From positions 1 to 25,691 of the IMG/VR virus record IMGVR_UViG_3300044621_000806: 25,691 nucleotides of DNA, one strand, 5' to 3'. Under the pieces are notes generated by a model, which worked only from the letters and a program-made list of their open reading frames with translations, had not been told where the DNA came from and made no database searches. Below, in pieces: positions 5,782 through 25,691 of the stretch. Source of the DNA: a virus. Both the position numbers and the translations under genes were made by a program. Position 1 is the first letter of the stretch, and every line of letters starts with the position of its first letter.

Positions 5782-5799
5782 TAGAGCTAGCGAAGCAAC

Positions 5800-5827: not shown

Positions 5828-5850
5828 AGGCTTCACCTGAAAGGAGCGCC

Positions 5851-6027: not shown

Positions 6028-7562
6028 TGCCCTTCACGCCGAAAGACTGGCGCAACTGGCCCGACACCACCACGCCACTCACAGCAACGGCGCTGGAGGA
6101 TTTAGAAGCCCGTCTAGCCGCCTACTCCGACACGCAGCCAGGGCCAAGCGGACCTTCCGGCGCAGCTGGCGCACCGGGTGCCACCGGGCCAACCGGCCCA
6201 AGTGGAGCGGCTGGTTCAGCAGGGGCCAGCGGCCCTAGCGGAGCGGACAGCACGGTACCAGGCCCAACCGGGCCGACAGGAGTAACGGGAGCCACCGGTC
6301 CGGCAGGTAGCGCGGGCGCAGTAGGAGCCACAGGAGTTACAGGCGCAACCGGACCAGCCGGAGCTACAGGACCAACTGGTGTGACTGGCGCAGCGGGTCC
6401 AAGCGGACCATCGGGACCGTCAGGGCCAGCGGGCATCGCAGGAGCCACGGGACCGAGCGGACCCACAGGACTTACTGGCCCAACGGGACCGACAGGAGTA
6501 ACCGGGGCTACCGGAGCGGCGGGAGCAAGCGGCACACCGGGTACGGCAGGGGTCACCGGACCCAGCGGCCCATCCGGTCCTGCCGGGGGTGGCAGCGGCA
6601 CACTTACCTTTGACTACGGACCCCCGACTGATCCAGGCTCATCCGGTGATTACTACATCGAGATTGACGGCACACCACTCTTTGATATTTGGACCTATGA
6701 CGGTACTGATTGGGTTGATTCGGGCATATCCTTTATTGCCTTCCCCGTTCCTCCGGGCGGCAGCACAGGCGAGGTTCTGGCAAAGGTTGATGCCGATGAC
6801 TGGAATCTTGAATGGGTAGCGGCAGGCGGCGGTCCTTCTGGTCCCGCAGGGGCAACGGGAGCCACCGGCCCAAGCGGACCCACAGGACTTACCGGGGCGA
6901 CAGGACCATCTGGCGTAACCGGCGCAGCGGGTCCAAGCGGACCCTCGGGACCAGCGGGCATCGCAGGAGCCACGGGACCGAGCGGACCCACAGGACTTAC
7001 AGGCGCAACGGGACCGACAGGAGTAACCGGGGCTACCGGAGCAACGGGAGCAACTGGTCCTATTGTAGATGCGACCAACCTCTCAGATACTTCGATATCG
7101 GTAAACTCTACTTCCGCCCAGACGATTGCCACTTTTATACCAAATACTGCTTTATCTTCAGGGAAGGCAATCGAAACAGAAGTAAAGGGATACCTGATAA
7201 ACAACTCTGGGGCCGCAAGGACTTATGTTTTCACCCTCATAGTTGGTGGGGTCACTTACCTGACCTACACCGATGGCGCGACTCTCACAAACTCAGCCAC
7301 AAATTTTTCGATTGTGGAAATATCTGCCGCTATTGTCACTCATTCTTCAGGCAGCGCCTATTTGCAGATGAGTATCAATCGCTACGCTCCTACTGCCGCA
7401 AATGCGAGACAGGCTATCGCCACAACTACATTAGGAGCGATTTATGCTTTGACAACAAATGACTTGACAGGCACTCCGACAATTCAAATAACTTGTCACG
7501 GCCAGAACACTACAGCTACGCAGACATTCCGGCGTAGGTTCCAGAAGAGCATCGTCATCTAG
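6027..7562 (+). CDS. Collagen-like virion fibre protein
   Basis: This is a predicted trimeric fibre on the virion surface. The 511-residue product starts at GTG 6027. It has an N-terminal anchor-like segment ([29 protein letters not shown], residues 2-30). A first Gly-X-Y collagen tract (about 39-187) follows, with one break at 75-78. A beta-rich spacer (about 190-265) includes [23 protein letters not shown], a linker type common in phage fibres. A second Gly-X-Y tract (about 269-344) leads to a non-collagen C-terminal domain (about 346-511) that looks beta-rich and may trimerise or bind a receptor. The triplets are dominated by GPS, GPT, GAT and GVT, so Ser/Thr occupies many Y positions. The C-terminal coding part is visibly richer in A+T than its neighbours, suggesting separate acquisition. 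It sits between head genes, so attachment could be to the head rather than the tail tip. Confidence 0.88.
6426..6517 (+). repeat. Direct repeat copy 1 in collagen gene
   Basis: This 92-base segment in the first collagen tract recurs at 6951-7042 with two mismatches that I can see (in the stretch CTTACTGGCCCAACGGG versus CTTACAGGCGCAACGGG). It encodes the Gly-X-Y run [18 protein letters not shown] and what follows. Homology continues upstream of both copies across a 9-base in-frame indel. Such long near-identical copies inside a degenerate-codon repeat point to recent duplication or gene conversion. Confidence 0.8.
6951..7042 (+). repeat. Direct repeat copy 2 in collagen gene
   Basis: This is the second copy of the 92-base repeat, offset 525 bases from the first, in the second collagen tract. 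Upstream of it the sequence GGCGCAGCGGGTCCAAGCGGACC is also shared. Copy 1 has one extra Gly-X-Y triplet (9 bases) just before the repeat, which fits slippage in units that keep the collagen register. Confidence 0.8.
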
Positions 7563-7592
7563 GTTCGCAACCTCGTGAAGGATCATCTAATC

Positions 7593-8609
7593 ATGAGATT
7601 CCACCTTCCAGCCCTACCCGGCCAGCCCGTCACAGCGGACAACTCAACCTGCGCCTTCACCCAGAAGGTCAGGAAGTTCGCCGACATGATGCGTCCACGC
7701 GGTCACGAGGTCATCACCTACGGCGGCGAAGGAGCAACGGTCGAGTGTTACCCGGCCACCGACCCACCAGCCTTTACACCGCAGGCGTGGGAGGACTTCA
7801 ACCGCAAAGCAGTCGAGGCAATAGCCAAACGCGCTAGATCCGGTGATGTGCTCGCCATGATCGGCGGCATCTGTCAGGAGAGCCTGGTGGACGCGCTCCC
7901 TGACCTTTACCCGGTCGAGTTCGGCATTGGCTACGGCGGCAGCTTCGCACCTTTCCGAATCTTCGAGTCCGTAGCGTGGCAACACACCACCTACGGACAA
8001 CAGCGCGGCACCAACAGCGCAGACGGCAGCTTCTACCACGCCGTCATCCCGGCCTACTTCGACCCTGAAGAACACCCTAGGCACGAAGGCAAAGAGGACT
8101 ACCTGCTCTACATCGGCAGGCTGGAAGAGCGCAAAGGCGTAGGAATCGCTGAGTCCGTGGCGCAGACGCTTGGCAAGCGGCTCATCCTCGCTGGCGCGGG
8201 ACCGTACCAGCCCACATACGGTGAAACCATAGGCGTAGTCGGACCTGAAGAACGGGCGCGGCTTATGTCACAGGCAGAGGCAGTGCTGATGCCCACCACC
8301 TACATTGAGCCATTCGGCTTCGTAGCGGTCGAGGCCCAGCTCGCAGGCACCCCACCGATCACCACCGACTGGGGAGCCTTCACCGAAACCGTCCAGCACA
8401 ACGTAACCGGCTTCCGTTGTCACACTCTAGGGGAGTTCTGCGAAGCAGTACGACGGGCACCGGAGCTCGACGGCGACCAGCTCAGGCAGTCAGCCATTGA
8501 CCGCTACAGCTACGACGCTGTTGCTCCGCAGTACGAGACTTACTTTGACCGCCTTACCACGCTCAACGGTGACGGCTGGCACTCCGACTATGTACCCAAG
8601 GGCTTCTGA
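7593..8609 (+). CDS. GT4-type glycosyltransferase
   Basis: This is a predicted GT-B-fold retaining glycosyltransferase that moves a sugar from a nucleotide donor to an unknown acceptor in the cytoplasm. From ATG 7593 the product is 338 residues. A GAAGGA ribosome site at 7577-7582 favours this start over GTG 7575. The N-terminal half resembles the GT-B acceptor domain (FTQKVRKFADMMRPRGHEV, with GGEGATVECY after it). The donor domain begins at YLLYIGRLEERKGVG (about 170-184) and carries the GT4 EX7E motif EPFGFVAVE (Glu239 and Glu247), followed by AGTPPITTDWGAFTETV. It sits between the collagen-like fibre and the Ser/Thr-repeat protein, overlapping the latter by one base, so either protein is a plausible acceptor. 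Donor sugar and acceptor are not readable from sequence. Confidence 0.85.
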   Translation: MRFHLPALPGQPVTADNSTCAFTQKVRKFADMMRPRGHEVITYGGEGATVECYPATDPPAFTPQAWEDFNRKAVEAIAKRARSGDVLAMIGGICQESLVDALPDLYPVEFGIGYGGSFAPFRIFESVAWQHTTYGQQRGTNSADGSFYHAVIPAYFDPEEHPRHEGKEDYLLYIGRLEERKGVGIAESVAQTLGKRLILAGAGPYQPTYGETIGVVGPEERARLMSQAEAVLMPTTYIEPFGFVAVEAQLAGTPPITTDWGAFTETVQHNVTGFRCHTLGEFCEAVRRAPELDGDQLRQSAIDRYSYDAVAPQYETYFDRLTTLNGDGWHSDYVPKGF

Positions 8610-9088
8610 TGAGCGACCGCTACCCGCGACCAGGGCTGTTCCCCGGAGCCAACATCTTCCCGAACCTGCCAGACCGACCCCGCTCAGGCGCAAGGCCGGA
8701 CGCAACCGTCTCTATCCCGAGCTTGACAGACAGCACCAGCAGGGCAACCACGCCCGACGAGATCAACGAAGCCGAGATCGCCGCAAGCAGTTCAGGCGCA
8801 GCGGTTACGGTAGGACGGTCGGCAGCAGCCATCGCCAGCGAGAGCGGCAAGGTAGCTATGGCATCCGGCACAGGCACGGCAACCGTGACCGTTCAGAGCA
8901 GTAGCGCGACGGCAACACCAGAGCGCGGAGCGGCGGCGGTTTCACCCAGCAGCTCCCGTTCAGCCGTAACCGGCCAAGACGGTGACGCAACTACCAGCAG
9001 CAGCAGCGGGAACGCCACCCCCGACGACACCCAGAGCAAGGGCGACATAACACCCGAGAGCGGAAAGGGGCAGATATTCGATGCCTGA
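8609..9088 (+). CDS. Ser/Thr-rich 9-residue repeat protein
   Basis: This encodes a 159-residue structural-type protein of unknown fold. Residues 1-42 are Pro/Gly-rich (PGLFPGANIFPN). Residues 43-159 divide exactly into thirteen 9-residue units with no gaps, ending at the C-terminus. Examples are SSGAAVTVG (61-69), RSAAAIASE (70-78), SGKVAMASG (79-87), TGTATVTVQ (88-96), RGAAAVSPS (106-114) and QSKGDITPE (142-150). Position 4 is nearly always Ala/Gly/Ser/Val, position 6 is most often Val/Ile/Thr, and most other sites are Ser, Thr, Gly or charged. This could be a short beta-roll or a mucin-like stalk; it lacks the GGxGxD calcium motif of RTX rolls. The gene overlaps the preceding glycosyltransferase (ATGA) and the next gene by 8 bases, suggesting joint expression and possible glycosylation. 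Confidence 0.75.
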   Translation: MSDRYPRPGLFPGANIFPNLPDRPRSGARPDATVSIPSLTDSTSRATTPDEINEAEIAASSSGAAVTVGRSAAAIASESGKVAMASGTGTATVTVQSSSATATPERGAAAVSPSSSRSAVTGQDGDATTSSSSGNATPDDTQSKGDITPESGKGQIFDA

Positions 9089-9407
9089 CTTGACACTGAA
9101 GCAGAACGACACATGGCCCCCGCTGGTTGCCACGCTCACAAAGGGCGACGGCTCACCCATCGACCTGACAACGGCGGGCACCGTCCACATCTACATGAAG
9201 GCACCCGCCGGCTCTATCCGGCAGGGCACCTGCTCGATCACCGACGCAGGGCAGGGTGTTGTGGAATACACCTTCGGCACCGCTGACACCGCCGTTCCTG
9301 GCACCTACAGGGTGGAGTGGGACATCGACTTCGGCACGGGCAAGCGGCAGACGGCTCCCAATGACACCTATCGGGAGATTCTGATCGTCGAATCGCTTGA
9401 CCCCTGA
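9081..9407 (+). CDS. BppU-like beta-sandwich virion protein
   Basis: The 108-residue product resembles the small N-terminal domain of phage baseplate upper proteins (BppU_N type) and related beta-sandwich domains. It starts MPDLTLKQNDTWPPLVATL, has GSPIDLTTAGTVHIYMK (about 25-41), a central turn AGQGVVEYTF and VPGTYRVEWDIDF (about 72-84), and ends in a final strand YREILIVES. Such domains are found as decoration or fibre-base modules in virions. It overlaps the Ser/Thr-repeat gene by 8 bases and is linked through TGATG to a 12-codon mini-ORF. Its place next to the fibre and repeat proteins suggests it anchors or caps them, but direct evidence is lacking. Confidence 0.68.
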   Translation: MPDLTLKQNDTWPPLVATLTKGDGSPIDLTTAGTVHIYMKAPAGSIRQGTCSITDAGQGVVEYTFGTADTAVPGTYRVEWDIDFGTGKRQTAPNDTYREILIVESLDP

Positions 9408-9445
9408 TGCCTGAGATTACCTACACCAAAGGAAGGGTCATCTGA
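9407..9445 (+). CDS. 12-codon mini-ORF bridging two genes
   Basis: An ATG at 9407 overlaps the stop of the BppU-like gene (TGATG) and encodes MPEITYTKGRVI. Its own TGA overlaps the ATG of the adaptor gene (TGATG at 9443-9447). It contains the adaptor's ribosome site (AAAGGAAGG, 9428-9436). It may serve translational coupling or be the remnant start of a lost gene. No function is claimed for the peptide. Confidence 0.35.
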   Translation: MPEITYTKGRVI

Positions 9446-10059
9446 TGCCGCTCACCCGATCATTTACCGGCTATACCCCGCCCCCGCGCTACGACGGACT
9501 GGCTTTCACTTCAGCCGTTATCCGCGAGTCCGACGCAAAGGACGGCACCTACGCCACCATCGAAACGGTTGCCCTGTTCCCGCTTGACACAAACCCGGCA
9601 GACCCCGTATCTCGCAACCTGACCACTGACGGAGCCACGGTCGTGAATGGCTGGTACATCATCCGCTGGGTGGACGCGCTCGGCTCCTACGCCGAAACGG
9701 ACCCGATCAGCTACGCGGCCCTAGCCGAGACTGAGGACGCAAGGGCCAAAATCAGCCGCATGGTCGACGCCGACTCCGAGCCGGTGCTCTCAGCCGAAGA
9801 CCTCGACGATCTTATTGACGCCGCAGCCCGCCCCGACGCTTACGGCCTCTACCGCAACGACGGAGCCTGGACCCCGACTTGGGACTTGAACGCTGCCGCT
9901 GCCGAAGGCTGGGCGCGTAAGTCAAGCAAGGCTGCCAACAAGTTCAACTTCTCCGAGGACGGGCAGCGGTTCGACCGTGCCCAGATATACGCCCACTGCG
10001 CCGCGCAGCAGAAGATGTACGCGGACAAGGCGATGGGCTCGCTTCCTCTTACCACTTAG
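9445..10059 (+). CDS. Head-tail adaptor with extra N-terminal domain
   Basis: The protein is predicted to bind the portal after packaging and form the first connector ring (gp6/gp15-type adaptor). Residues about 97-195 carry the adaptor-like part. It contains RAKISRMVDADSEPVLSAEDLDDLIDAAARPDAYG, then WTPTWDLNAAAAEGWARKSSKAANKFNFSEDGQRF and the helix QIYAHCAAQQKMY, a pattern common in actinobacterial-phage adaptors. Residues about 1-90 form an additional beta-rich domain (YDGLAFTSAVIRESDAKDG, then GWYIIRWVDALGSYAETDPI) resembling a fibronectin/Ig-like module. The product is 204 residues, longer than a bare adaptor. The gene starts at ATG 9445 inside TGATG. The next connector genes lie 4 kb away, past a glycosylation cassette. 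Confidence 0.78.
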   Translation: MPLTRSFTGYTPPPRYDGLAFTSAVIRESDAKDGTYATIETVALFPLDTNPADPVSRNLTTDGATVVNGWYIIRWVDALGSYAETDPISYAALAETEDARAKISRMVDADSEPVLSAEDLDDLIDAAARPDAYGLYRNDGAWTPTWDLNAAAAEGWARKSSKAANKFNFSEDGQRFDRAQIYAHCAAQQKMYADKAMGSLPLTT

Positions 10060-10091
10060 GGCACACGCCCGCCAAGTGTGGAGTGACGGTG

Positions 10092-10125
10092 GGTGGCTGC
10101 CGTTGCTCCGCAATCTTTAGCCACC
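10092..10125 (+). other. Hairpin before glycosylation operon
   Basis: GGTGGCT (10092-10098) can pair with AGCCACC (10119-10125) across a 20-base loop in the 88-base gap between the adaptor gene and the first operon glycosyltransferase. A second AAGCCACC copy follows at 10126-10133, so alternative pairing is possible just upstream of the GAAGGAG ribosome site. It lacks a T-run. It may modulate the operon, but could be chance. Confidence 0.3.
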
Positions 10126-10147
10126 AAGCCACCTGAAGGAGCCACCA

Positions 10148-11344
10148 ATGAGTAAAGAGTCGAGCCTGCTTTGGCACTCGAACGCACCGTGGAGTCCGAC
10201 CGGCTACGGCCAGCAGACTGCCGCGTTTTGTAAGCCGCTCAAGGATCACTACAACCTTGGCATCTCAGCCTTCTATGGCTTGGAGTCCAACGTATTGCCG
10301 TGGAATGGGATACCCGTTTACCCAGGGTTTGCCAACAAGCACGGCAACGAAACGATCCTCGAGCACGCCAACGTTCACTTCAACGGCGACGTTCGAGCTG
10401 GCATTGTCGCCACCCTCATGGATGTCTGGGTTTTGGACCCTGCCATCTGGGAGCGGCTCGACACCTGCTGCTGGGTGCCGGTAGACCACGACCCTGCGCC
10501 TGACGCGGTGGTTGGCTTCTTCCAGGCATCCGGTGCTGTGCCCATCGCAATGTCGAAGTTCGGACGCAGGATGCTCGAGGACGCCGGCCTTGATCCGCTT
10601 TACGTCCCGCACGCGGTTGACACCAGCATTTACAAGCCTCTGGATAAGACAGAGTGCCGGGAGGCAACCGGGATAGATTCCGACGCCTTTGTGGTCGGCA
10701 TGGTGGCAGCCAACAAGGGGAACCCTTCCCGCAAGTGCTTTCATGAGGCGTTTCAGGCTTTCAAGGCTCTCCATGACAAGCACCCAGAGGCGAGGTTGTA
10801 CGTACACGCCGAGGTTCAGGGCCGGTTTGCTGGCGTGAATCTGGCGGGGCTTATGCGCGACATTGGCCTTGATCCCGATGTTGTCATGTTTCCTGACCAG
10901 TACCGGGTGGTCCACTACCCGTACCAGCCAGAGACAATGGCGCGAATCTTCAACTGCTTTGACGTGCTGCTTTCGCCGTCAGCAGGTGAGGGATTCGGTA
11001 TTCCGGTGCTCGAGGCCCAGGCTTGCGGTGTGCCGGTCATCGTGTCGGACTTCTCAGCCCAGCCCGAGCTTTGCGGCAGCGGCTGGCTGGTAACAGGCCG
11101 CAAGGTCTACACGCCGATGCGTAGCTGGCAGTTCCTGCCCGACGTGGACGACATCGTGGACGCTCTCAGGCAGGCATACGACATGCCGGAAGCAGCACAC
11201 AAGCGAATGGGCAAGAAGGCGCGGGAGTTCGCGCTTCCCTACGACATCACAAAGGTCATGGATCAGCACATGCTGCCCGCACTGGCTGAAGTTGAGCGGC
11301 GCTTCGCAGCTCGCAAGCCTCAGACACTCAAGGCGGCAGCGTGA
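10148..11344 (+). CDS. GT4-family glycosyltransferase
   Basis: This is a predicted GT-B-fold glycosyltransferase, the first gene of the tight sugar operon. The 398-residue product has the N-terminal nucleotide/acceptor-side loop SNAPWSPTGYGQQTA (residues 11-25) and a Rossmann-like donor domain from about residue 180 (DAFVVGMVAANKGNPSRKCFHEAF). The GT4 EX7E motif is EGFGIPVLE (Glu281 and Glu289), followed by AQACGVPVIVSDFSAQPELCG. Length and domain order are normal for complete GT4 enzymes. The start is supported by GAAGGAG just upstream of ATG 10148. Its end overlaps the next gene by four bases (GTGA). The acceptor is unknown; the location inside a structural operon suggests a virion protein rather than host cell wall. 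Confidence 0.9.
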   Translation: MSKESSLLWHSNAPWSPTGYGQQTAAFCKPLKDHYNLGISAFYGLESNVLPWNGIPVYPGFANKHGNETILEHANVHFNGDVRAGIVATLMDVWVLDPAIWERLDTCCWVPVDHDPAPDAVVGFFQASGAVPIAMSKFGRRMLEDAGLDPLYVPHAVDTSIYKPLDKTECREATGIDSDAFVVGMVAANKGNPSRKCFHEAFQAFKALHDKHPEARLYVHAEVQGRFAGVNLAGLMRDIGLDPDVVMFPDQYRVVHYPYQPETMARIFNCFDVLLSPSAGEGFGIPVLEAQACGVPVIVSDFSAQPELCGSGWLVTGRKVYTPMRSWQFLPDVDDIVDALRQAYDMPEAAHKRMGKKAREFALPYDITKVMDQHMLPALAEVERRFAARKPQTLKAAA

Positions 11345-12108
11345 AGGTTTCATTCCTCTACGACCCCGGCTGCGCAGACGGCACCCGTGGTGGAGCAGAG
11401 CTGGTAATGGACGAGCTGACAGAAGCCGCTCCGGATTCAGTTGAGTTCACCGGCCCCGCCGACGCTGACACGGTGGTGATCGGCAACTGCGTAACGCTGA
11501 ACAAGGACACGATCCTTTCGCAGATCGAAGGCAAGCGGGTAATGCGCTACCACCACGACCTGGCCCGCGACGAGGACGAGGTTCTGTGGGACTGGCTAAG
11601 CGTCAACGCCGAGCACATCTTCACCTCGCCGTTTCACAAAGAGCAGTACGGACACGAAGGTGACGCGCACCTGATCCCGCCGACCGCCAACCTCAAGTCC
11701 TTCCGCCCGCCACGTGACAAACGCAGGCACCCCAAGCGTGAAGGCATCGTCACGGTGGGATCGTGGCAGGGACCGGGCAAGGGAGCACAGCTTGTCTCGG
11801 AGACTGTCTACCGGATAGGTGAAACCCTGGACTGCTACGGCACCGGCCCCTGGCAGCCAGTAGGCCAGCACGTCAACAGCAAGGGAGCCGTAAGGCACTC
11901 AGACCTGCCGGCGATCCTCTGGACCTACGAGCAGTTCATCTTCCTGCCGTTTGCTGCTGAGCCCTTTGGTCGCTGCGTAGCTGAAGCCTGGGCTGCCGGT
12001 TGTGAAGTGATGACCAACGAGATGGTCGGCTCGAAGTGGTGGATTGAGAACAAGCCCGACGAGCTCTACACCGCAGCTGAAGACTTCTGGAGCATCGTCA
12101 ATGATTGA
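11341..12108 (+). CDS. Compact GT4-like glycosyltransferase
   Basis: This is a GT-B-type glycosyltransferase of only 255 residues, starting at GTG 11341 in a GTGA overlap. The N-terminus MKVSFLYDPGCADGTRGGAEL has the Gly-rich loop seen in GT4 enzymes (GGAEL at 17-21). The region around residue 137 (VTVGSWQGPGKG) starts the donor domain. The EX7E motif is EPFGRCVAE (Glu207 and Glu215), followed by AWAAGCEVMTNEMVG. The protein is shorter than typical GT4 enzymes, with abbreviated linker segments, but both key glutamates are kept, so an active compact enzyme is plausible. It overlaps the following GT-A-like gene by eight bases. Substrates are unknown. Confidence 0.85.
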   Translation: MKVSFLYDPGCADGTRGGAELVMDELTEAAPDSVEFTGPADADTVVIGNCVTLNKDTILSQIEGKRVMRYHHDLARDEDEVLWDWLSVNAEHIFTSPFHKEQYGHEGDAHLIPPTANLKSFRPPRDKRRHPKREGIVTVGSWQGPGKGAQLVSETVYRIGETLDCYGTGPWQPVGQHVNSKGAVRHSDLPAILWTYEQFIFLPFAAEPFGRCVAEAWAAGCEVMTNEMVGSKWWIENKPDELYTAAEDFWSIVND

Positions 12109-12676
12109 CCTGATCGTTCCGACCATCGAAGGCCGCGAAGAGTCGCTGGAGCGCTGCCTTGCTTCCTTCCCAGACCTCAACCACATCGTGGTCAAGGGTC
12201 AGCCGACCTGCGGCCTTGGCTGGATTGAAGGCATCAAGAGAAGCAGCGCGGACTACCTGCTGCTTTGCTGCGATGACATTGAGGCCGAACCAGACTGCGA
12301 CCTCAATGCCTGTATCGAGACGGTCGACGACGATTACCTTCCCGCTCCGATCATCTACCGGCCAAACGGCACCGTTGAGTCCGCAGGCGGCGATATGGGA
12401 GCGCCAGGCTGCCTGCTTAGCGACGTTCAGCCCGACTGGACCCCTGTGGACTTCACGCCGCTTCCCTTTGTCAGCAGGGAGCAGATCGAAAAGATCCGAA
12501 TGATCGAGGCCCACTACATGACCGACGTGTACCTCTCCCACAAAGGCAGGCAGCTCGGTTACGAAACGGTCCTGAGAAACGACTTCCGGCTGATCCATCA
12601 CCACGAGATGGCCGGCAGGAAGTCACCCGGCCCCGACGATCAGGCGCTTTACGAACGAGGGCTGTCGGATGCGTGA
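12101..12676 (+). CDS. GT2-like (GT-A) glycosyltransferase, short
   Basis: This is a likely GT-A-fold glycosyltransferase of 191 residues starting at ATG 12101. The N-terminus MIDLIVPTIEGREESLERCL matches the first strand and helix of GT2 enzymes. DYLLLCCDDIEAEPD (residues 51-65) holds an acidic DD pair in the DxD position. The C-terminal segment YMTDVYLSHKGRQLGYETVL with a downstream HHHEM resembles the rhamnosyltransferase-like GT2 ending, where a His is often conserved. A longer frame opening at 12044 exists, but ATG 12101 begins the conserved strand exactly and overlaps the preceding stop region as is usual in this operon. The enzyme is short for GT2. It overlaps the methyltransferase-like gene by eight bases. 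Confidence 0.78.
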   Translation: MIDLIVPTIEGREESLERCLASFPDLNHIVVKGQPTCGLGWIEGIKRSSADYLLLCCDDIEAEPDCDLNACIETVDDDYLPAPIIYRPNGTVESAGGDMGAPGCLLSDVQPDWTPVDFTPLPFVSREQIEKIRMIEAHYMTDVYLSHKGRQLGYETVLRNDFRLIHHHEMAGRKSPGPDDQALYERGLSDA

Positions 12677-13103
12677 CCCTTACGCCAGCCACCTGAGCGT
12701 CCTGACAACGCTGCTGAACACCTACCACCCAGAGCGCGTGCTCGAATACGGCTCAGGCAAATACTCAACTCCGCTTTTTCTATCGCGTCGGCACATCAAA
12801 AAGCTCACCGTCGTGGAGCAAGACTTGGTTTGGCGTCAAGAGCTGGTCTACAACAACCACGACCCGCGAATGACCGTATTGGCCGAGGGCAACCCGAGCC
12901 CGATGAACTACGACCTCATTTTGATTGACGACGGCATTACGTCTGAACAGCGATGCCGAACCATTCGCGCCGTTTTATCCCGCCGCCACCCGGTAGTCGT
13001 AATCCACGACGCCGAAGTAGAGGAGTACCGAGAACTGATGGACGAGCTGGCAGACGAAGTGCTGATCTACAGAACCGGGCCAGACACGGCGGTGATCTTG
13101 TGA
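12669..13103 (+). CDS. SAM-methyltransferase-like protein
   Basis: The 144-residue product looks like a small Rossmann-fold class I methyltransferase domain. Motif I is VLEYGSGKYSTPLFL (residues 24-38, with GSG as the SAM loop). An acidic residue ends the second strand in LTVVEQD (46-52), and the fourth-strand motif is YDLILIDDG (81-89). VVVIHDAEVEEY follows (about 110-120). It is short for the family and may be a minimal or partly degenerate enzyme. Within this operon an O-methyl capping of a sugar is the natural guess, but the substrate is not shown. It overlaps the upstream GT2-like gene by eight bases and the epimerase gene by four (GTGA). Confidence 0.72.
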   Translation: MRDPYASHLSVLTTLLNTYHPERVLEYGSGKYSTPLFLSRRHIKKLTVVEQDLVWRQELVYNNHDPRMTVLAEGNPSPMNYDLILIDDGITSEQRCRTIRAVLSRRHPVVVIHDAEVEEYRELMDELADEVLIYRTGPDTAVIL

Positions 13104-14026
13104 GAGTCCTTATCACTGGCAGCCTGGGCACCATTGGGGTGCCGCTAACCTTTGAGCTTGCCAACCGAGGAAACGCTGTCTTTGGCTGCGACGTTCGCCA
13201 CGCGGACCAAGAGCAGGACACCTACATGCGGGCCGACGTTGCCGACTTTCGCCAGCTTGAGCGGGTCTTCGCTGAATACCAGCCCGAGGCCGTCTATCAC
13301 CTGGCCGCTGAGTTCGGAAGGCACAACGGCAACCGGCACTTTGAGCAGGTCTGGCGCACCAACCTGATCGGCACTCACAACGTTCTGCTGCTCTGCGAGC
13401 AGTTCGGAGCCAAGCTGATCTTTGCCAGCACGTCAGAAATCTACGGCGAGTGCGACGCAAAGCTCTTGAGCGAAGACCTGAGCCATCAGATCCCGCTTCG
13501 CCAGCCCAACGAATATGCCTTGAGCAAGTGGGCAAACGAGCAACAGATACTCAACTTCACCCGGCTTCACGATGTGGAAGCAGTCAGGCTCCGGTTTTTC
13601 AACGCCTACGGGCCCGGAGAGAACTACCACCCTTACCGCTCAGTGATCGCTTTGTTCTGCCACCGGGCGCTCAACAACATCCCGTGGGAAGTCTACGAGG
13701 GCTACTACCGGACCTTCATGTACATCACGGACTTCACGCCCACCCTGGCGAACGTGCTGGACTACGGCGTACCGGGCGAGGTCTACAACATCGGCGGCAA
13801 CGATTACCGCGCCGTCAAGGAAGTCTCCGACCTGATCCTCGAGCACACCGGAGCCGACCCCGGCCTTGTGAGCTATTTGCCCGAGGATGTTCACAACGTC
13901 AAAAGCAAGAGGCCGGACAATCGCCGCGCCATTGCCGAGCTCGGACACAGCCCGCAGGTTCGGATTGAGGAAGGCGTGCCGCTGACGCTGGACTGGATGC
14001 TTTCGCAGAAACCACTTGCCGCATAG
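13100..14026 (+). CDS. NAD-dependent sugar epimerase/dehydratase
   Basis: This is an extended short-chain dehydrogenase predicted to convert a nucleotide sugar (epimerisation, 4,6-dehydration or similar) and so feed the neighbouring glycosyltransferases. From GTG 13100 the product is 308 residues. The dinucleotide loop is MRVLITGSLGTIG (GxxGxxG at 7-13). An acidic Asp31 ends the second strand (GCDVRH), favouring NAD(H). YHLAAEFG (66-73) and FASTSEIYG (108-116) are family motifs, and the catalytic YxxxK is YALSK (Tyr139, Lys143). RFFNAYGPGE and the C-terminal YNIGGNDYRAVKEVSDLI complete the fold. A longer ORF from 12953 would run through the methyltransferase gene and is less likely. The exact nucleotide sugar is unknown. 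Confidence 0.9.
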   Translation: MRVLITGSLGTIGVPLTFELANRGNAVFGCDVRHADQEQDTYMRADVADFRQLERVFAEYQPEAVYHLAAEFGRHNGNRHFEQVWRTNLIGTHNVLLLCEQFGAKLIFASTSEIYGECDAKLLSEDLSHQIPLRQPNEYALSKWANEQQILNFTRLHDVEAVRLRFFNAYGPGENYHPYRSVIALFCHRALNNIPWEVYEGYYRTFMYITDFTPTLANVLDYGVPGEVYNIGGNDYRAVKEVSDLILEHTGADPGLVSYLPEDVHNVKSKRPDNRRAIAELGHSPQVRIEEGVPLTLDWMLSQKPLAA

Positions 14027-16527: not shown

Positions 16528-16548
16528 CGAAAGGAGCTGGTCTAGTTG
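16528..16548 (+). promoter_or_regulatory. RBS and TTG start of tape measure
   Basis: CGAAAGGAG (16528-16536) is followed nine bases later by TTG (16546-16548), which begins the frame of the tape measure (Ser-Gln-Thr-Ser next). No ATG or GTG gives a comparable start with a ribosome site. A strong ribosome site with a weak TTG codon suggests tuned, low-level initiation, in line with the terminator just upstream. Confidence 0.7.
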
Positions 16549-19500
16549 TCGCAGACTTCATTGAACATCCTGGTCACCGCTACAACCGCGCAGGCACAGG
16601 CGCAGCTGGCGGCGGTCAATGCCCAGATGAAGACCATGGCGGCTCAGGCCGGCATCTCCGGTGGTGCCTTGGGCAAGATTGGCAAGGGCGGGGCTGGCAT
16701 CGCTGCTGTGGGTGCGGTCGCTGTTGTGGCGGGCAAGCAGCTCTATGACCTAGCCAAACAATTCGACGAAGCCTACGACACCATCCGAGTAGGCACGGGA
16801 GCGACGGGCAGGGAGCTAGAAAAGCTCAAAGGCAATTTCAAGGAAGTAGCCAGGACAGTCCCTAACGATTTCAAGGAAGTCGGCACAGCCGTAGCGGACC
16901 TGAATACCCGCCTGGGTCTTTCCGGGAAGCCGCTTGAAGCAATGGCGGAGAACATGCTCCACCTCTCCAACATCACAGGCACAGACCTCGAGGGAAACAT
17001 CAAGTCAGTGGCTAGGGCGTTCGTGGATTGGGAAGTGCCGGTCAAGAAGCAGACCGGGGCACTCGACGGCCTGTTTCGGCTAAGCCAGAAGTCCGGTGCC
17101 AGCGTGAGCGAAATAGCGGACAACATCCAGAAGTTTGGCTCACCGCTCAGAACGCTTGGGCTGAACATTGACTACGCCGCTGCGATGTTCGCCAACTTTG
17201 AGCGGGCAGGCGTGAACATGCAGACGATGGTTCCCGGCCTGAAGTTGGCAATCGGCAACATGGTCGATCCGACCGACGAGCTCGCCAAGAAGTTTGAGAC
17301 TCTGGGCGTCGAGGCTGATAAGCCAGCCGCCGGCCTTCAGAAAATATTCGCTGCTATTGGCAATGATTCTCAACTCAGCAAGGTAGAGAAGATGACCTTG
17401 GCAATGGAGGTCTTCGGCAAGCGGGCCGGTGCGGATATGGCAGAGGCCGTGCGTCAGGGACGCTTTGACGTTGGGGCGTTCATGGACACTTTCAACGACA
17501 AAAACGGCGACAGCATCCGTAAGGCGGCTGACGAAACCTATGACTTCTCAGAGAACGTAAGAATCCTGACCAATAATCTGAAGATTTATCTGGAGCCAGC
17601 AGCAAATGAAGTGTTCACTGCTCTCGACCGGATGGTCAGAAGGATCAACGATGCGATGACGGCACAAAGAGAAGGACGTGCCGAAACAGATGACCTTGCT
17701 ACGGCCTTTCAGGTTCTTGGAGCGGCCATTAGGGCAACCGGCTGGTTGTTTAGGCAGTTCTTCACGCTTGTCAGGAATTCCTTTACAAAAGCCAAGTCAA
17801 ACGTTCGAGACTTTTCCCTCGCTTGGAAGTTCTTGAAAGAAGAAGTCACAGAAAACATCAACCAGATCAAACGAGCATTCGGGATGCTTTACAACTTCAT
17901 CAAGGCCAATATAAACAAGGTTGTTGGCGACATGAAGGCTTTTGCGTCAACTACGAAAAACGTTTTTGGCGCGGTCAAGGATGGAATCGTAAGCGCATTC
18001 AGTTCCGCATGGGGCCGCGTAAAATCCATTTTCCAAGGTGCCAAGGGTTTTGTTGTCGGTTTTGTCAACTCCATCCTTGGAATCTTGGACAGCATCCCTG
18101 GCGTTGACATATCGCCTATCTCTCTGGGCACTGGCGAAGGGACAAGCAAACGGGGACGCCCTCGTGGTCTACAGCGCGGCGGTGTGCTTCAGGGCGGCGC
18201 AGCTTCTGGCGATTCAATCCCGGCCATGCTGGAGCGCGGCGAGTACGTGCTGAACAGAAAAGCAGTCGAGAAAATCGGTGTAGGACGGCTCAATCACATC
18301 AACTTCAAGTCTGCTTCACGGTTCCAGACCGGCGGGGTAGTCGGACTTCAGGATGGCGGCTACCTTGACACTTTGACCGAGCTGCCGGGCAAGTTAATCA
18401 GCCCTATTGCTGACGCTGGGACTGCGGCGCTGGATCTTTTGATGAACGGCCCTGCTCAGTTCCTCAAGATGCTGCCGAAGCCCAATATCCCGCAGCCTCT
18501 CACCGGCGTAGGTCCGTATCTGTTGGAGAAGGCAATCTCGTTTATAAAAGAGAACGCCCAGAGCCCGCTCAAAGACAACGAGTGGGTTGACAGCAACACC
18601 TTCGCCGTCGCTAACTTCCTTGCCAACAAGTTCAGCGCGTCGATCAGCTCGAGCTACAGATCGCCGGCACAAAACGCAGCTGCCGGAGGCGTAACGAACT
18701 CCTCGCACACCAGAGGCACGCCTTCCAACCCCGGCGCTTTTGACTTTGTGCCGCCGTCTGGCGGAATGCAGGGCTTCGTCGGCAGCAACATCGCTGGCGT
18801 ATCAGAGAACATGATTCACGATGTCGGCTCTGGCCTTCACAACCACGTTGCCTTTTTCAGCAGGGGCGGACTGGTTGGGAAAGCTAAGCGCACGCTTTCA
18901 TACGCAAAGGACGTCCAGAAAGAGACTAAGAACAGCAAACTTGCCGGGCAAGCGGTCAAGGCCGCAAGCAGGGCGCTTGACTTTGCCAAAAATGGCAAGC
19001 CTGGCATGGCCAAGAAGTTCATGAAGCGAGCCCAGAGGCTGAGCTCAAGGGCAGCCAGTTCTATCCCCGGCCTAAGTTCTGGGCCACCAAATCTGGCTAC
19101 TAATAGCTTTGACGAAAGCAAGCCTTTCAGTCCTACAAACCTGCCGGGCTTTTCGTTCTTGCCGAAACAAGTTCAGGATCTGATGATGTCACCCGGCCTG
19201 AGTCCTGCCGCTCGACAGAACCTGACGGGCATGGCGCTCACAATGGCTGGGCAGACTCCGACCAAGACTGATGACGCTGCCGCTCTCAACGTCATTTTGC
19301 GAACGCAGATAAACCAGAAGTCAAAAGCGCAAAAGGATCTCCGCAAGGCGAACGCGATGCTTGCCAAGGGTGGCCTGACCAAGAAGGAGAGGCAGCGCTG
19401 GATGGGAGTGCGCGACAGGTCGCTGAACAGCCTGACCACCGCGACTGGCGACATCATCTCAACCACCGACTCCATCAACGAGCTAAACGGCGGCGATGGG

Positions 19501-19686
19501 GAAACCTCTATGGCGGACGCCATGAAGGAGCTGGCCGATGCCATCAAGGAGCAAAACAGGCTCCAGTCGGGCGTCCAGGCTGTCGGCTCCCGCGAAGCGC
19601 TGCGGATGCTCTCGGACGTAATCAGCGGTGAGATCGTCGGCAAGAGATCAGCACCGGCAAATTCCTACTCTGGAGTGAGGTACTAA
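16546..19686 (+). CDS. Tape measure protein with peptidase-like domain
   Basis: The tape measure sets tail length and is ejected with DNA. The 1,046-residue product has an Ala-rich helical N-terminus with a hydrophobic Gly/Ala/Val stretch (about residues 50-65). A phage TMP core contains the EVARTVPNDFKEVG and LAKKFETLGVEADK segments. A helical region (about 370-500) is followed by the conserved GDSIPAMLERGEYVLNRKA motif from residue 555. Residues about 700-770 resemble an M15-type (LAS) peptidase: SSSYRSP (701-707), SSHTRG with His721, AFDF with Asp733 and LHNHV with His765/His767. A C-terminal coiled-coil region follows (about 900-1010). Coding around 17700-18060 is visibly more A+T-rich. 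The start is TTG. The peptidase could thin peptidoglycan during infection. Confidence 0.93.
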   Translation: MSQTSLNILVTATTAQAQAQLAAVNAQMKTMAAQAGISGGALGKIGKGGAGIAAVGAVAVVAGKQLYDLAKQFDEAYDTIRVGTGATGRELEKLKGNFKEVARTVPNDFKEVGTAVADLNTRLGLSGKPLEAMAENMLHLSNITGTDLEGNIKSVARAFVDWEVPVKKQTGALDGLFRLSQKSGASVSEIADNIQKFGSPLRTLGLNIDYAAAMFANFERAGVNMQTMVPGLKLAIGNMVDPTDELAKKFETLGVEADKPAAGLQKIFAAIGNDSQLSKVEKMTLAMEVFGKRAGADMAEAVRQGRFDVGAFMDTFNDKNGDSIRKAADETYDFSENVRILTNNLKIYLEPAANEVFTALDRMVRRINDAMTAQREGRAETDDLATAFQVLGAAIRATGWLFRQFFTLVRNSFTKAKSNVRDFSLAWKFLKEEVTENINQIKRAFGMLYNFIKANINKVVGDMKAFASTTKNVFGAVKDGIVSAFSSAWGRVKSIFQGAKGFVVGFVNSILGILDSIPGVDISPISLGTGEGTSKRGRPRGLQRGGVLQGGAASGDSIPAMLERGEYVLNRKAVEKIGVGRLNHINFKSASRFQTGGVVGLQDGGYLDTLTELPGKLISPIADAGTAALDLLMNGPAQFLKMLPKPNIPQPLTGVGPYLLEKAISFIKENAQSPLKDNEWVDSNTFAVANFLANKFSASISSSYRSPAQNAAAGGVTNSSHTRGTPSNPGAFDFVPPSGGMQGFVGSNIAGVSENMIHDVGSGLHNHVAFFSRGGLVGKAKRTLSYAKDVQKETKNSKLAGQAVKAASRALDFAKNGKPGMAKKFMKRAQRLSSRAASSIPGLSSGPPNLATNSFDESKPFSPTNLPGFSFLPKQVQDLMMSPGLSPAARQNLTGMALTMAGQTPTKTDDAAALNVILRTQINQKSKAQKDLRKANAMLAKGGLTKKERQRWMGVRDRSLNSLTTATGDIISTTDSINELNGGDGETSMADAMKELADAIKEQNRLQSGVQAVGSREALRMLSDVISGEIVGKRSAPANSYSGVRY

Positions 19687-22305: not shown

Positions 22306-23894
22306 AGCCACCGGCAGAGATCAACGCGGAGGTGGTGCTGCCGTCCGGCGACCGCATCCGCTGGGACTCCGCAGCACCGAACGTCGAGAACCGTCCGCTC
22401 TCACCGACCTTCACAAGCGAGTCGGGCAAGGGCTTTGCCGCCGGTTCGGTCACGCTCACAAGGCCGACCGAGCGCGACTACCCAGAGCTGGGACTGCTGA
22501 ACGAGCTCATCCTTCGCACAGCCACCGGCAGGACGGTCTATCAGGGCAGGGCTCAGGGTGTGCCTGTATCTGACACGTTCCAGTTCGACTGCGACGGGTG
22601 GTGGAGCCACGGCGAGCAGCGCACCATGACTGAGGTGCTGATCGACCGCGACCTGGGCCGGTGGGAAGGTCCGCGCCTTTCGCGCAGAACCCTTCTCGTT
22701 GCTCTTTCCAACACGCCGATTACCGAGCCTGCTGTTTCGCCGGATGACATAGACAAACTGATGGCGCTCAGATTGTCCATGCCGCCTTCCCCCGCATCGC
22801 CGGTTCCGTGGTCGGAAGCTTGGTATGACGCTGGCTCTTCAAGGGTTGCGGCGATTTACTACGACATGATTTCAGTCAGCGCTTCAGGTGACTTTGGGTT
22901 TATCGGCACCGCAACTGACGAGGTTGGATTCGGGCCGCTTTCCACTGCCGACCTTCTGACCGGCACCAACTCAACTGCGGTTGGCACCTTTACACCCAGC
23001 ACACCGGCCAGGTTCGGTCGAGCGTTTGCCTACCGCTCAGGCACGGCCAACACCGCTGAGAAGTCCATGACGCTCCGCAAGCTCACCGTCGTAGGTGACC
23101 ACGGCATTCCGACCGTTACCCACGCAGAAGGCACCCCGGCAGTTACGGCATCTGAGGCGATCAAATATCTGGCGAGCAAGTACGCGCCGAAGTGGGATGT
23201 ATCAGGCGTACAAGACACCTCCTACCCGATCCCGCACGCCACATGGCATGACCCGACCACCGCAGCCGACGCGATCAAGCAGCTCAACTCCTACCACCTG
23301 TGGAAGCTCGGAGTCTGGGAAGACCGCCGACTGGAGTTCGCACCCTACGACCTGGCTGTGGCTGACTGGCAGGTAGCCAACGGCATTGACGGCGTGAGTG
23401 TCGAGTACCAGGGAGACACCACCGAGAACGTCTTCAACGGCTGCTCTGTGACCTTTACTGACTTTTCAGGACTACGGCAGAGGCTCACGCCCGAGGACAC
23501 CAACGATCTCAAAGACGAAGCCGAGTGGATTGCCGCCAACCAGTGGGGAGATCAGGCTTGGCTGGAGATCACCGTTTCGTGGCCGACCACGGCAGACGAC
23601 GCTGTGACCATCGGGAACATCGCACTTGCTTCGGCTAATCAGGCCAAGCGGCCTTCAACGATCACGGTCCCCATGCACATCAAGGACATCAACGGCTCAT
23701 GGTGGCCGAGCTCCTACGTGCGAGCCGACCAGACGATTCTCGTAACCAACCAGCACACGCCCGTACCGCGACTGATAACCCGCGCTTCCTGGTCTAACCA
23801 CGTCCTGACTCTTACGACGGACAACGCCATTGACACGATGGAAGCCTTCAACCAGCGCATCGGGACTGCCCTTACAGCGAATGGACTGACATGA
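22302..23894 (+). CDS. Tail hub / minor tail protein (Tal-like)
   Basis: The 530-residue protein probably forms the central baseplate hub at the tail tip. It starts MKPPAEINAEVVLPSGDRIRW and has a first beta domain ending near RAQGVPVSDTFQFDCDGWWSHGE, typical of hub proteins that redefine a local coordinate (the gp27/gpD-like fold). An insert at about 165-270 (SEAWYDAGSSRVAAIYYDM through RSGTANTAEKSMTLRKL) looks like a separate beta sandwich. Then come TASEAIKYLASKYAPKWDVS and ATWHDPTTAADAIKQLNSYHLWKLGVWEDRRLEF, features common to minor tail hub proteins. No catalytic peptidase motif is visible. It overlaps the Dit-like and lysis genes by four bases each (ATGA). Confidence 0.8.
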   Translation: MKPPAEINAEVVLPSGDRIRWDSAAPNVENRPLSPTFTSESGKGFAAGSVTLTRPTERDYPELGLLNELILRTATGRTVYQGRAQGVPVSDTFQFDCDGWWSHGEQRTMTEVLIDRDLGRWEGPRLSRRTLLVALSNTPITEPAVSPDDIDKLMALRLSMPPSPASPVPWSEAWYDAGSSRVAAIYYDMISVSASGDFGFIGTATDEVGFGPLSTADLLTGTNSTAVGTFTPSTPARFGRAFAYRSGTANTAEKSMTLRKLTVVGDHGIPTVTHAEGTPAVTASEAIKYLASKYAPKWDVSGVQDTSYPIPHATWHDPTTAADAIKQLNSYHLWKLGVWEDRRLEFAPYDLAVADWQVANGIDGVSVEYQGDTTENVFNGCSVTFTDFSGLRQRLTPEDTNDLKDEAEWIAANQWGDQAWLEITVSWPTTADDAVTIGNIALASANQAKRPSTITVPMHIKDINGSWWPSSYVRADQTILVTNQHTPVPRLITRASWSNHVLTLTTDNAIDTMEAFNQRIGTALTANGLT

Positions 23895-24187
23895 CACCAG
23901 GCGACATCAACACCATTCTTGTTGAGCTGGGGCGCATCGCCACGAAACTTGACGCACAGCAGGAGGCGCTGACGGAGATCCGCAGCGAGGTCAAAAAGAC
24001 CAACGGGCGAGTGACCGAGCTCGAAGGCAGGGAGCAAGTCGACAAGGCGCTCATCAACCAGCGCCAGCAGCGCGATCAGCAGTACCGCGAGCGGATTGCC
24101 CGCTGGGTGGCACCGGGGGTCATCGGTTTTCTAGTTGTCATCGGTAGTGCCGCGACGGTGGCACTGCTGAATCTGGACAAGCTCTAA
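23891..24187 (+). CDS. XhlA-like coiled-coil membrane protein
   Basis: The 98-residue product is a predicted coiled coil (residues about 5-62, rich in Glu/Gln/Arg, including KLDAQQEALTEIRSEVKKTNGRVTEL). A basic linker follows, then one C-terminal membrane segment (about 74-93, WVAPGVIGFLVVIGSAATV) with a short tail. This is the plan of XhlA/hemolysin-type accessory lysis proteins that work with a holin and lysin. It starts in an ATGA overlap with the hub gene and lies directly before two lysin genes. An N-in orientation is guessed from the basic linker. It may help holin function or tether lysin at the membrane. Confidence 0.75.
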   Translation: MTPGDINTILVELGRIATKLDAQQEALTEIRSEVKKTNGRVTELEGREQVDKALINQRQQRDQQYRERIARWVAPGVIGFLVVIGSAATVALLNLDKL

Positions 24188-24202: not shown

Positions 24203-24739
24203 ATGGCCGCACCACTTTCCACTCTGCGGAACAAACTGCGGAGGCGCAAGTCTGCCCGCGAACGGCAGGCCAAGCTCTACCGCAAGAACCGCCAGCGAGG
24301 AAACGCCAAAGCCGTCCGCACCCACAACGGCGCAATCGCCAAGCTGCGGAAGCTCATCAAGCGAGCAGTGCTTCGCAGGCCAGAGTCGGGAACGGGCCCG
24401 TGGCAGGGCTGCCAGTCGATTGCCACCAACGAGATCATCCCGATTGGCCGCAAGTGGGGCATCCCGGTCACATCGAGGAAGCGCAGCGAGACTTACGGCA
24501 ACCCGTCAAGCGATCATTACTTTGGGAACACCAACGCTTATGCGGTGGACTTCGGCACCGACTCCAACTATGCCTTCGGTGCGGCCATAGGCGATGCGCT
24601 CGGAGTGCCTTACAACGGCGCAGGCGACGATTACGCTGAGCACATCATCAGCAGGGCAGGGCGGCAGTTCCGCATCCAGATCATCTGCGGCACACACGGC
24701 ACCGGCCCACACACCCACGTCGGAATCAGGCGAGTCTGA
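24203..24739 (+). CDS. Endolysin: M15-like metallopeptidase
   Basis: This is a predicted peptidoglycan peptidase for host lysis. The 178-residue product has a strongly basic helical N-terminus (about residues 8-59, many Arg/Lys). A catalytic domain (about 65-178) with LAS/M15-like metal ligands follows: SSDHYFGNTNAYAVDFG with His105 and Asp116, and GPHTHVGIRR with His170 and His172. The His-Asp spacing is longer than the classic S-x-H-x-x-G-x-A-x-D, so the class call is by motif style. The ribosome site AGGAGG (24192-24197) fits ATG 24203. Its basic N-terminus aligns without gaps to that of the following lysozyme. The stop overlaps that gene by one base (TGATG). Confidence 0.8.
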   Translation: MAAPLSTLRNKLRRRKSARERQAKLYRKNRQRGNAKAVRTHNGAIAKLRKLIKRAVLRRPESGTGPWQGCQSIATNEIIPIGRKWGIPVTSRKRSETYGNPSSDHYFGNTNAYAVDFGTDSNYAFGAAIGDALGVPYNGAGDDYAEHIISRAGRQFRIQIICGTHGTGPHTHVGIRRV

Positions 24740-25443
24740 TGCTGACCAAGCTCAGGCAAAAGCTCAAGCAGCGCATCCGCTCACGCAATCGCCAGGTGGG
24801 AAAGTGGGAACAGACCAAGGCACCCGGTTACGCCAAAGCAGCCAGAGGCCATGTTCGCGCCATTCGCAAGCTGAGGCGCATCATCCGTCGAAAGACCGAC
24901 GCATCAAACGCGACCCTTTCTGACAAGGGAGCCGCTTTCATCTCATCGTTTGAGGGTTTCTTCTCGAAGCCTTACAACGATCCGGTCGGCTACGCCACGG
25001 TGGGCTACGGGCATCTGCTCGGATACCGGCCTGTGAACGACGCTGACCGGCAGGGAGTCTGGATCAAGGGCCAAGACAAACCGGGACAGCTCACGGAGCG
25101 CGAGGCCCGGCAGCTGCTGCGCCAGAAGGTCGCTGCCGACTATGCGCCTGCGGTCAAGGCGCTGTTCGACAAAGGCGGGCCGCTCGAGGGCCAGTTCACT
25201 CAGGAGTTTTTTGACGGGCTGGTTTCGTTTGCCTTCAATCTCGGACCCGGCGCAGTCACACCCGGCACACCCGGCTTTGAGACTGTCGGCAAAGCCATCG
25301 ACTCTGGCAACCGTCGAGCCATTGCCAGTGCCTTGCTGCTCTATCACAAGGCCGGCGGCTCTGCTTTGCCAGGGCTGACCCGCCGACGCAGGGCTGAGAA
25401 TCGTCTAATCAGAACCGGGAACTACTCAACAGAGTTCCCCTGA
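24739..25443 (+). CDS. Endolysin: GH24 lysozyme (T4 lysozyme-like)
   Basis: This muramidase cleaves the glycan backbone of peptidoglycan. The 234-residue product has a basic N-terminal helical domain (about 5-53) and a GH24 domain from about residue 60. The catalytic triad matches T4 lysozyme spacing exactly: Glu72 (FEGFFSKPYNDPVGY), Asp81 nine residues on and Thr87 six further (ATVGYGHLL). The lower lobe follows: QLTEREARQLL, FDGLVSFAFNLGPGA and the C-terminal GLTRRRRAENRL, all family features. It is coupled to the peptidase gene upstream and, through TGATG, to the tiny membrane ORF downstream. There is no signal peptide, so release depends on a holin. Confidence 0.95.
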   Translation: MLTKLRQKLKQRIRSRNRQVGKWEQTKAPGYAKAARGHVRAIRKLRRIIRRKTDASNATLSDKGAAFISSFEGFFSKPYNDPVGYATVGYGHLLGYRPVNDADRQGVWIKGQDKPGQLTEREARQLLRQKVAADYAPAVKALFDKGGPLEGQFTQEFFDGLVSFAFNLGPGAVTPGTPGFETVGKAIDSGNRRAIASALLLYHKAGGSALPGLTRRRRAENRLIRTGNYSTEFP

Positions 25444-25514
25444 TGGACCCCGTGCTTCTCGTGTTTGTCCTAGTGCTGATGGTCGCCAGTCATATCTCGA
25501 AAGGAAACCCGTGA
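25443..25514 (+). CDS. 23-residue membrane peptide
   Basis: A 23-codon ORF begins at ATG 25443, overlapping the lysozyme stop (TGATG), and ends at 25514, overlapping the next GTG (GTGA). The product starts MDPVLLVFVLVLMVAS and ends HISKGNP, so nearly all of it is one hydrophobic segment. Its last codons contain the next gene's ribosome site (CGAAAGGA, 25498-25505). It could be a small lysis regulator or holin partner, or only a coupling device. The conserved-style overlaps favour real translation. Confidence 0.5.
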   Translation: MDPVLLVFVLVLMVASHISKGNP

Positions 25515-25691
25515 GATCAATACTCAGAGCTTTCTACATTGAGCCAACCGTTGTGCTGCTCACCGCCAATGCCGTAGTAGCGGCCTTGGCTGCTGAGGGA
25601 ATCATTGCCGGTTGGATCTCCGTCGTGGTCATCGCGGCCACCGCTCCAATCCTTCGCCACTTTGTCGAGCCGGTGGGAAGGCGCTCTGGCC
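25511..25691 (+). CDS. Holin-like membrane protein, partial
   Basis: The frame starts at GTG 25511 behind CGAAAGGA (25498-25505) and stays open to the end of the window, so the C-terminus is missing. The visible 60 residues have a short amphipathic start (RSILRAFYIEPT), a hydrophobic segment (VVLLTANAVVAALAAEGIIAG) and a second one (WISVVVIAATAPIL), then a basic turn. Two membrane segments after a lysin gene suggest a holin that permeabilises the membrane for lysin release. The call rests on topology and position only. Confidence 0.6.
   Translation, partial: MRSILRAFYIEPTVVLLTANAVVAALAAEGIIAGWISVVVIAATAPILRHFVEPVGRRSG

What the first reader, a model, noticed from the sequence alone, without database searches (positions are those of the whole stretch)
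24224..24892. Two adjacent lysins of different catalytic families share one basic N-terminal domain
Residues 8-54 of the peptidase and 5-51 of the GH24 lysozyme align without gaps with 21 of 47 identical by my count, including LR-x-KL, R-x-RQ, AKA-x-R-x-H and KLR-x-x-I. The domain is strongly cationic and helical. It may target both enzymes to anionic wall polymers or the outer surface, or act as a membrane-active peptide. Fusion of the same module to two unrelated catalytic domains in tandem implies duplication and domain swap.
Basis: seen in the sequence. Interest (0 to 1): 0.6.

Follow-up and report, generated by a model that had tools for sequence, protein, structure and literature searches.

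The report
Split phage lysins sharing one module
A bacteria-killing virus makes its cell-wall-cutting enzyme as two separate proteins and gives both the same small positively charged helical handle, an arrangement that recurs with different handles in other viruses of actinobacteria and probably holds each cutter to the wall.

Summary
Residues 8-54 of the peptidase and 5-51 of the GH24 lysozyme are 21/47 identical without gaps. No shuffle reaches this, including ones that keep the K/R pattern or the helical phase, so composition does not explain it. A second virus (L007, 51-57% identical) has the same tandem pair with the domain on both enzymes. The domain is a predicted helical hairpin, net charge about +19, with no significant match in Pfam, PHROGs, NCBIfam or the PDB.

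The pair is best read as a split actinophage endolysin ("split LysA"). In at least three further groups both halves of such a pair carry one accessory module: basic C-terminal domains on GH24 plus VanY-type peptidases in Thermoleophilia genomes; N-terminal hairpins on an M15-like peptidase plus Amidase_2; and a non-basic C-terminal domain on Gordonia phage split lysins. In four single-gene relatives checked, the Gordonia domain occurs once; in split pairs, twice. Mayweather shows no sharing, so the rule is not universal.

Most likely the module anchors each separated enzyme to the wall. Binding is inferred, not shown. Targeting by charge alone, an outer-surface role and a membrane-active peptide are less supported.

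The parts
23891..24187 (+). Holin-like protein, 98 aa: coiled-coil-like stretch followed by one C-terminal hydrophobic segment
   Evidence: Sequence; weak PHROG 689 holin match, E 0.011. Role inferred from position.
24203..24739 (+). Lysin 1: N-terminal basic hairpin plus M15-like peptidase domain, 178 aa
   Evidence: strong Shine-Dalgarno AGGAGG just upstream; M15-like by motif and bridging relatives
24224..24364 (+). Shared basic hairpin, copy 1 (residues 8-54)
   Evidence: 21/47 identities with copy 2, 0 of 20,000 shuffles in each of several nulls
24374..24736 (+). M15-like peptidase domain; H105, D116, H170 and H172 conserved in L007
   Evidence: metal binding is inferred from the motif
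24737..24741 (+). TGATG overlap of stop and start codons, translational coupling inferred
   Evidence: sequence
24739..25443 (+). Lysin 2: N-terminal basic hairpin plus GH24 lysozyme domain, 234 aa
   Evidence: PF00959 E 1.4e-24; phrog_7 endolysin E 1.7e-39
24751..24891 (+). Shared basic hairpin, copy 2 (residues 5-51)
   Evidence: predicted helices 2-26 and 29-56, pLDDT about 80
24946..25398 (+). GH24 catalytic domain (residues 70-220); E72, D81, T87 spaced as the T4 lysozyme triad
   Evidence: the comparison with T4 rests on established knowledge
25511..25690 (+). Small hydrophobic protein cut by the window end, possible second holin
   Evidence: sequence; an intact homologue lies downstream of the lysins in L007 at 5764-5949

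Best explanation
This is a split endolysin of an actinobacterial siphovirus. The two cutting activities, an M15-like peptide cutter and a GH24 glycan cutter, are made as two probably translationally coupled proteins. Each carries its own copy of the accessory module, a basic two-helix hairpin. When an endolysin is one protein, a single anchoring domain serves all its catalytic domains; when it is made as two proteins, each needs its own anchor, so the module is duplicated. After holin-mediated release the hairpin most likely holds each enzyme to the host wall (peptidoglycan or an anionic wall glycopolymer) so that both work at the same sites. Shown: homology of the two copies, conservation in a second virus, recurrence of the matched-module arrangement with other modules, and one copy in the fused lysins examined against two in the split pairs for the Gordonia module. 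Inferred: wall binding and its ligand, that the ancestor was fused, and metal catalysis by the peptidase.
For: Homology of the two copies beyond composition and helical phase. Same tandem pair with both copies in L007, whose proteins are 51-57% identical. Recurrence in Thermoleophilia genomes: GH24 + VanY/M15 pairs with a shared C-terminal basic domain in G001 and G083 and probably G236, and M15-like + Amidase_2 with a shared N-terminal hairpin in G386. Gordonia phages: KappaFarmDelta gp20/gp22 share a C-terminal domain, score 144 against 34.9 +/- 5.4; it is present once in fused lysins (CosmicSans, RGL3, Denise, TouchMeNot) and once on each half of split pairs (KappaFarmDelta, Clown, Trax). 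Split peptidase + glycosidase LysA is a described arrangement in Gordonia phages (PMC9671378). Terminase places the virus with actinophages.
Against: No binding was measured. Mayweather's split pair shows no shared domain, Culver's only marginally. The hairpin has no known relative with a tested function. The Gordonia module is not basic, so it is an analogy of arrangement and not homology. The fused/split comparison used a handful of records, not a full survey.
Confidence: 0.58

Rival explanations
1. The hairpin is a docking device: the two lysins pair through it (hetero- or homo-oligomer of helical hairpins) into one two-enzyme complex.
For: A shared helical hairpin on two co-made proteins. 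Endolysin isoforms of phage phi2638A do form a heterodimer, though through their amidase domains (PMC12203907).
Against: Two surfaces of about +19 each should repel. Recurrence with a non-basic Gordonia module that is also present once in fused lysins does not need pairing.
Confidence: 0.15
2. The hairpin is membrane-active: it binds anionic lipids, helping the enzymes gather at or cross the cytoplasmic membrane, or damage it, during lysis.
For: High charge, and a second helix of high hydrophobic moment (0.57-0.78).
Against: The first helix has a low to moderate moment and very low mean hydrophobicity. No hydrophobic SAR-like segment is seen. Holin candidates lie beside the genes, so an export helper is not required.
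Confidence: 0.13
3. The hairpin holds the lysins in the cytoplasm by binding nucleic acid or ribosomes until the holin opens the membrane, as a timing device.
For: Arg/Lys-rich helices commonly bind nucleic acid (general knowledge); net charge about +19.
Against: No DNA- or RNA-binding family matches. The Gordonia module in the same position is not basic.
Confidence: 0.08
4. The second copy is a by-product of recombination in a mosaic region and has no role of its own.
For: Phage lysin genes are mosaic (PMC3314691, known modularity); the tandem position would favour recombination.
Against: Both copies are kept in L007 although the proteins differ by almost half, and matched modules recur in other groups.
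Confidence: 0.05

Closest known systems
Split LysA of Gordonia phages, e.g. KappaFarmDelta gp20/gp22 and Clown gp44/gp45 (PMC9671378)
   Same: Peptidase gene followed by a glycosidase gene, one catalytic domain each, next to holin-like genes; in these phages both halves also share one accessory domain.
   Different: The shared domain is C-terminal, not basic (net -2) and unrelated in sequence; the glycosidase is not GH24; the peptidases are M15_4-type with no detectable sequence similarity to the window's.
Tandem GH24 + VanY/M15 lysins of Thermoleophilia genomes (L030/G001, L068/G083, L089/G236)
   Same: Same pair of activities, tandem genes, a shared basic helix-rich domain on both; GH24 of L030 is 48% identical to the L007-based query.
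   Different: The domain is C-terminal and homology with the window hairpin is not detectable; gene order in G001 and G236 is GH24 first.
M15-like peptidase + Amidase_2 pair in G386 (L087)
   Same: Closest peptidase relative in genomes (E 3e-25), overlapping genes, N-terminal charged hairpin on both.
   Different: Partner is an amidase; hairpins are longer and less basic (+7 and +3); homology with the window hairpin is only suggestive.
Pneumococcal lysins such as Cpl-1 and Pal (from general knowledge, not tested here)
   Same: Different catalytic families carrying the same wall-binding domain.
   Different: They belong to different phages and not to a tandem pair in one phage; the domain is a set of choline-binding repeats.
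phi2638A endolysin isoforms (PMC12203907)
   Same: Two lysin polypeptides from one locus that share a wall-binding domain (SH3b).
   Different: One gene with an internal start; the shared part includes a catalytic domain and the polypeptides dimerise through it.

Membership tests
GH24 / Phage_lysozyme (PF00959) | Profile match above the curated cut-off | tested here: met
   87.3 bits against a cut-off of 22.3, residues 70-220
GH24 / Phage_lysozyme (PF00959) | Catalytic E, D and T with the spacing of T4 lysozyme (E11, D20, T26) | tested here: met
   E72, D81 and T87; E72 and T87 are invariant in the ten-row alignment and D81 is kept in the closest rows; T4 numbering from general knowledge
Peptidase M15 (PF08291 and related) | Profile match above the curated cut-off | tested here: inconclusive
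   No direct match. A relative found with the domain's profile at E 1.6e-14 (L084) scores 22.4 against a cut-off of 23.2, and a more distant one (L086) scores 43.5.
Peptidase M15 (PF08291 and related) | Conserved metal-ligand motif SxH...D...HxH | tested here: met
   H105, D116, H170 and H172 are invariant in window and L007, and SDH...D...HxH recurs in most confirmed relatives; zinc binding itself not tested
Peptidase M15 (PF08291 and related) | M15 (LAS) fold | tested here: inconclusive
   The model is weak (pLDDT 58) and fold searches gave no clear match
Split LysA of actinophages | Two adjacent lysin genes of different catalytic type, one catalytic domain each, beside holin-like genes | tested here: met
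   arrangement as in Mayweather and KappaFarmDelta. Both lysins share the hairpin, an additional feature.
Split LysA of actinophages | Actinobacterial host | tested here: inconclusive
   Host inferred from terminase similarity and relatives in Thermoleophilia genomes; no direct host link
Known wall-binding domain families (LysM, SH3b, PG_binding_1, CW_7 and others) | Profile match of the hairpin to a curated family | tested here: not met
   No Pfam match up to E 1 except a stray Snf7 hit at 0.088 on one L007 copy; none in NCBIfam; PHROG hits only at E of about 0.02 or worse to families of unknown function
Wall-binding domain in the functional sense | Binds cell walls | not testable with these tools
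   Needs a binding assay

The most novel reading that the evidence does not exclude
Endolysins made as two proteins tend to carry one matched anchoring module per protein, with the module itself freely replaced (basic N-terminal hairpins, a basic C-terminal domain, a non-basic Gordonia-type domain). The window's hairpin would then be an undescribed wall-binding fold specific to these viruses.
Probability: 0.4. Interest if true: 0.6.

Novelty: new variant of a known kind. Interest (0 to 1): 0.45.

Why it matters
Why some phages split their endolysin, and how the halves stay coordinated, is open: the Gordonia survey states that the contribution of split genes to lysis and fitness is unknown (PMC9671378). 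Matched modules on both halves, against one copy in fused relatives, suggest a simple testable rule: each separate polypeptide needs its own anchor. It also gives a sequence-only way to find undescribed wall-binding domains: look for what two neighbouring, catalytically unrelated lysins share.

Tried and rejected
Composition, helical periodicity and chance were rejected by shuffles. Searches for the hairpin in viral contigs gave only two near-identical records and L007; L065 is a chance match in an unrelated long protein. The hairpin profile in 399 genomes of the class gave only hits that look like chance, in unrelated frames. tblastn of the peptidase and of an L007 hairpin against 50,697 phage records gave nothing meaningful; the low-complexity filter may hide some. 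Homology of the window hairpin with the C-terminal type was considered and left open: hhalign finds nothing, and the set-level score (34.1; 5 of 500 column shuffles as high) is close to a reversed control (32.8). Homology with the G386 amidase hairpin is suggestive (46.8 against 30.2 +/- 3.1, 0/500; forward 44.8 against reversed 32.8), but the G386 peptidase copy shows none with the window set. Fold searches of the weak peptidase model gave no clear match. PHROG 7773 and 2154 matches are too weak to use. The order of duplication could not be resolved: ortholog identities are 27 and 27, paralog and cross identities 22-26, of 51. Scans for promoters and terminators around the cassette showed nothing above shuffles. 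No paper found describes shared accessory domains on split lysins, but the library lacks most subscription journals.

Full report
Check of the observation. The two genes are as described: a 178-aa protein at 24203-24739 and a 234-aa GH24 lysozyme at 24739-25443, overlapping in TGATG. The ungapped match of residues 8-54 and 5-51 has exactly 21 of 47 identities. Plain shuffles average 5.7; shuffles that leave every K/R position basic average 9.9 and reach at most 19 in 20,000. Shuffles within helical phase (4 or 7) reach at most 17.

Structure and charge. The domain carries +19 (peptidase) and +18 (GH24) against +2 and +5 for the rest of the proteins. AlphaFold2 with ten related rows models the GH24 copy as two helices, 2-26 and 29-56, at pLDDT near 80; only three of those rows contain the domain. 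The peptidase model is weak. No family library or PDB sequence search recognises the domain.

Conservation. Viral contigs contain two near-identical records and one clearly different virus, L007, whose peptidase and GH24 are 51% and 56-57% identical to the window's and lie in the same order with overlapping genes. Both L007 lysins carry the hairpin; 16 columns are invariant over all copies, among them L, G, H, A and I positions. The window record and the L007 record each hold exactly two copies.

What the proteins are. GH24 is clear. The peptidase has no direct profile match; its SSDH...AYAVDF...HxHVGI motif and an intermediate relative that nearly reaches the PF08291 cut-off make it M15-like. 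The terminase is closest to Streptomyces phage Kromp (40%), and nearly all matching records are actinophages.

Recurrence. A genome scan with the GH24 alignment found one MAG of Solirubrobacterales. There a GH24 and a VanY/M15-type peptidase stand side by side and share a basic C-terminal domain, 54% identical. The same domain type is on both members of the pair in G083 and, in a diverged form on the peptidase, probably in G236 (37 of 3,000 shuffles scored as high). A search with the peptidase catalytic domain in the same class found G386, where an M15-like peptidase overlaps an Amidase_2 gene and both start with a related hairpin (66 against 33.7 +/- 6.2, 0 of 5,000 shuffles as high, though the best shuffle reached 65; reversed control 39). 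Whether these are active prophages was not established.

Comparison with isolated phages. Split LysA genes with a peptidase and a glycosidase are described in Gordonia phages (PMC9671378); the passages read there and the papers found did not mention a shared accessory domain. In KappaFarmDelta the two proteins do share a C-terminal domain (144 against 34.9 +/- 5.4, 0/500). It occurs at 310 places in 186 phage records; nearly all the listed Gordonia records have two places and the listed Rhodococcus and Corynebacterium records one. Reading seven records shows one copy in fused M23+GH25 or M23+Amidase_2 lysins (CosmicSans, RGL3, TouchMeNot, Denise) and one on each half of split pairs (KappaFarmDelta, Clown, Trax). 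Culver is marginal and Mayweather negative, so this is a tendency.

Interpretation. The modules differ in sequence, charge and end of the protein, but in these pairs both halves carry the same one. The simplest reading is that each separated enzyme needs its own anchor. Trax gp35, which carries the Gordonia module, is annotated by its depositors as having a peptidoglycan-binding domain; that is annotation, not a test, and the protein also has an Amidase_2 domain. For the window's hairpin, wall binding is inferred by analogy with these pairs and from its charge. Charge alone is a weak argument: the Gordonia module has net -2, and raising the charge of PlyC CHAP did not help it (PMC6628322).

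Rivals. Docking of the two lysins through the hairpin, membrane activity, cytoplasmic retention by nucleic-acid binding, and a recombination by-product were weighed; none is excluded by experiment. Docking is disfavoured by like charges, the by-product view by conservation in L007 and recurrence elsewhere.

Limits. The comparison of fused and split lysins was not done on a random or complete sample. Several loci were found because they resembled the query, so their number says nothing about frequency. The fused ancestor is inferred. The host of the window virus is inferred from relatives. Structural evidence for the hairpin is a prediction from few sequences.

Noticed in passing
window 7575-14026: Several glycosyltransferase-like genes, a methyltransferase-like gene and an NAD-dependent epimerase-like gene lie between the capsid and tail genes; judged by eye from the translations, no family search was run. 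L007 also has a glycosyltransferase-like gene directly before its lysins (L007:3387-4442).
   Followed up: no
window 6027-7562: A 511-aa protein with long collagen-like G-x-x repeats ([13 protein letters not shown]...) just after the major capsid gene.
   Followed up: no
window 16546-19686: The tape measure protein holds a weak Peptidase_M15_3 match (residues 699-736, E 7e-4), so a second, tail-borne M15-like peptidase is possible.
   Followed up: no
window 64-468: The small gene before the terminase matches phrog_226, labelled 'minor tail protein' (E 1.2e-25); by position a small terminase subunit would be expected.
   Followed up: no
L063, minus strand frame from 1606: A protein of another kind (looks like a CHAP-type domain, by eye) carries a partial match to the Thermoleophilia C-terminal lysin domain near its N-terminus (E 1e-5), hinting that this module is mobile.
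   Followed up: partly
L070, L071, L080: Relatives of the window's peptidase domain in Thermoleophilia sit behind a membrane segment and a glucosaminidase-like stretch in cellular-looking proteins, perhaps from conjugative elements.
   Followed up: no
L072, L081: Further relatives of the peptidase domain lie at the end of long proteins that look like phage tail proteins, so the domain is used both in tails and in lysis.
   Followed up: no
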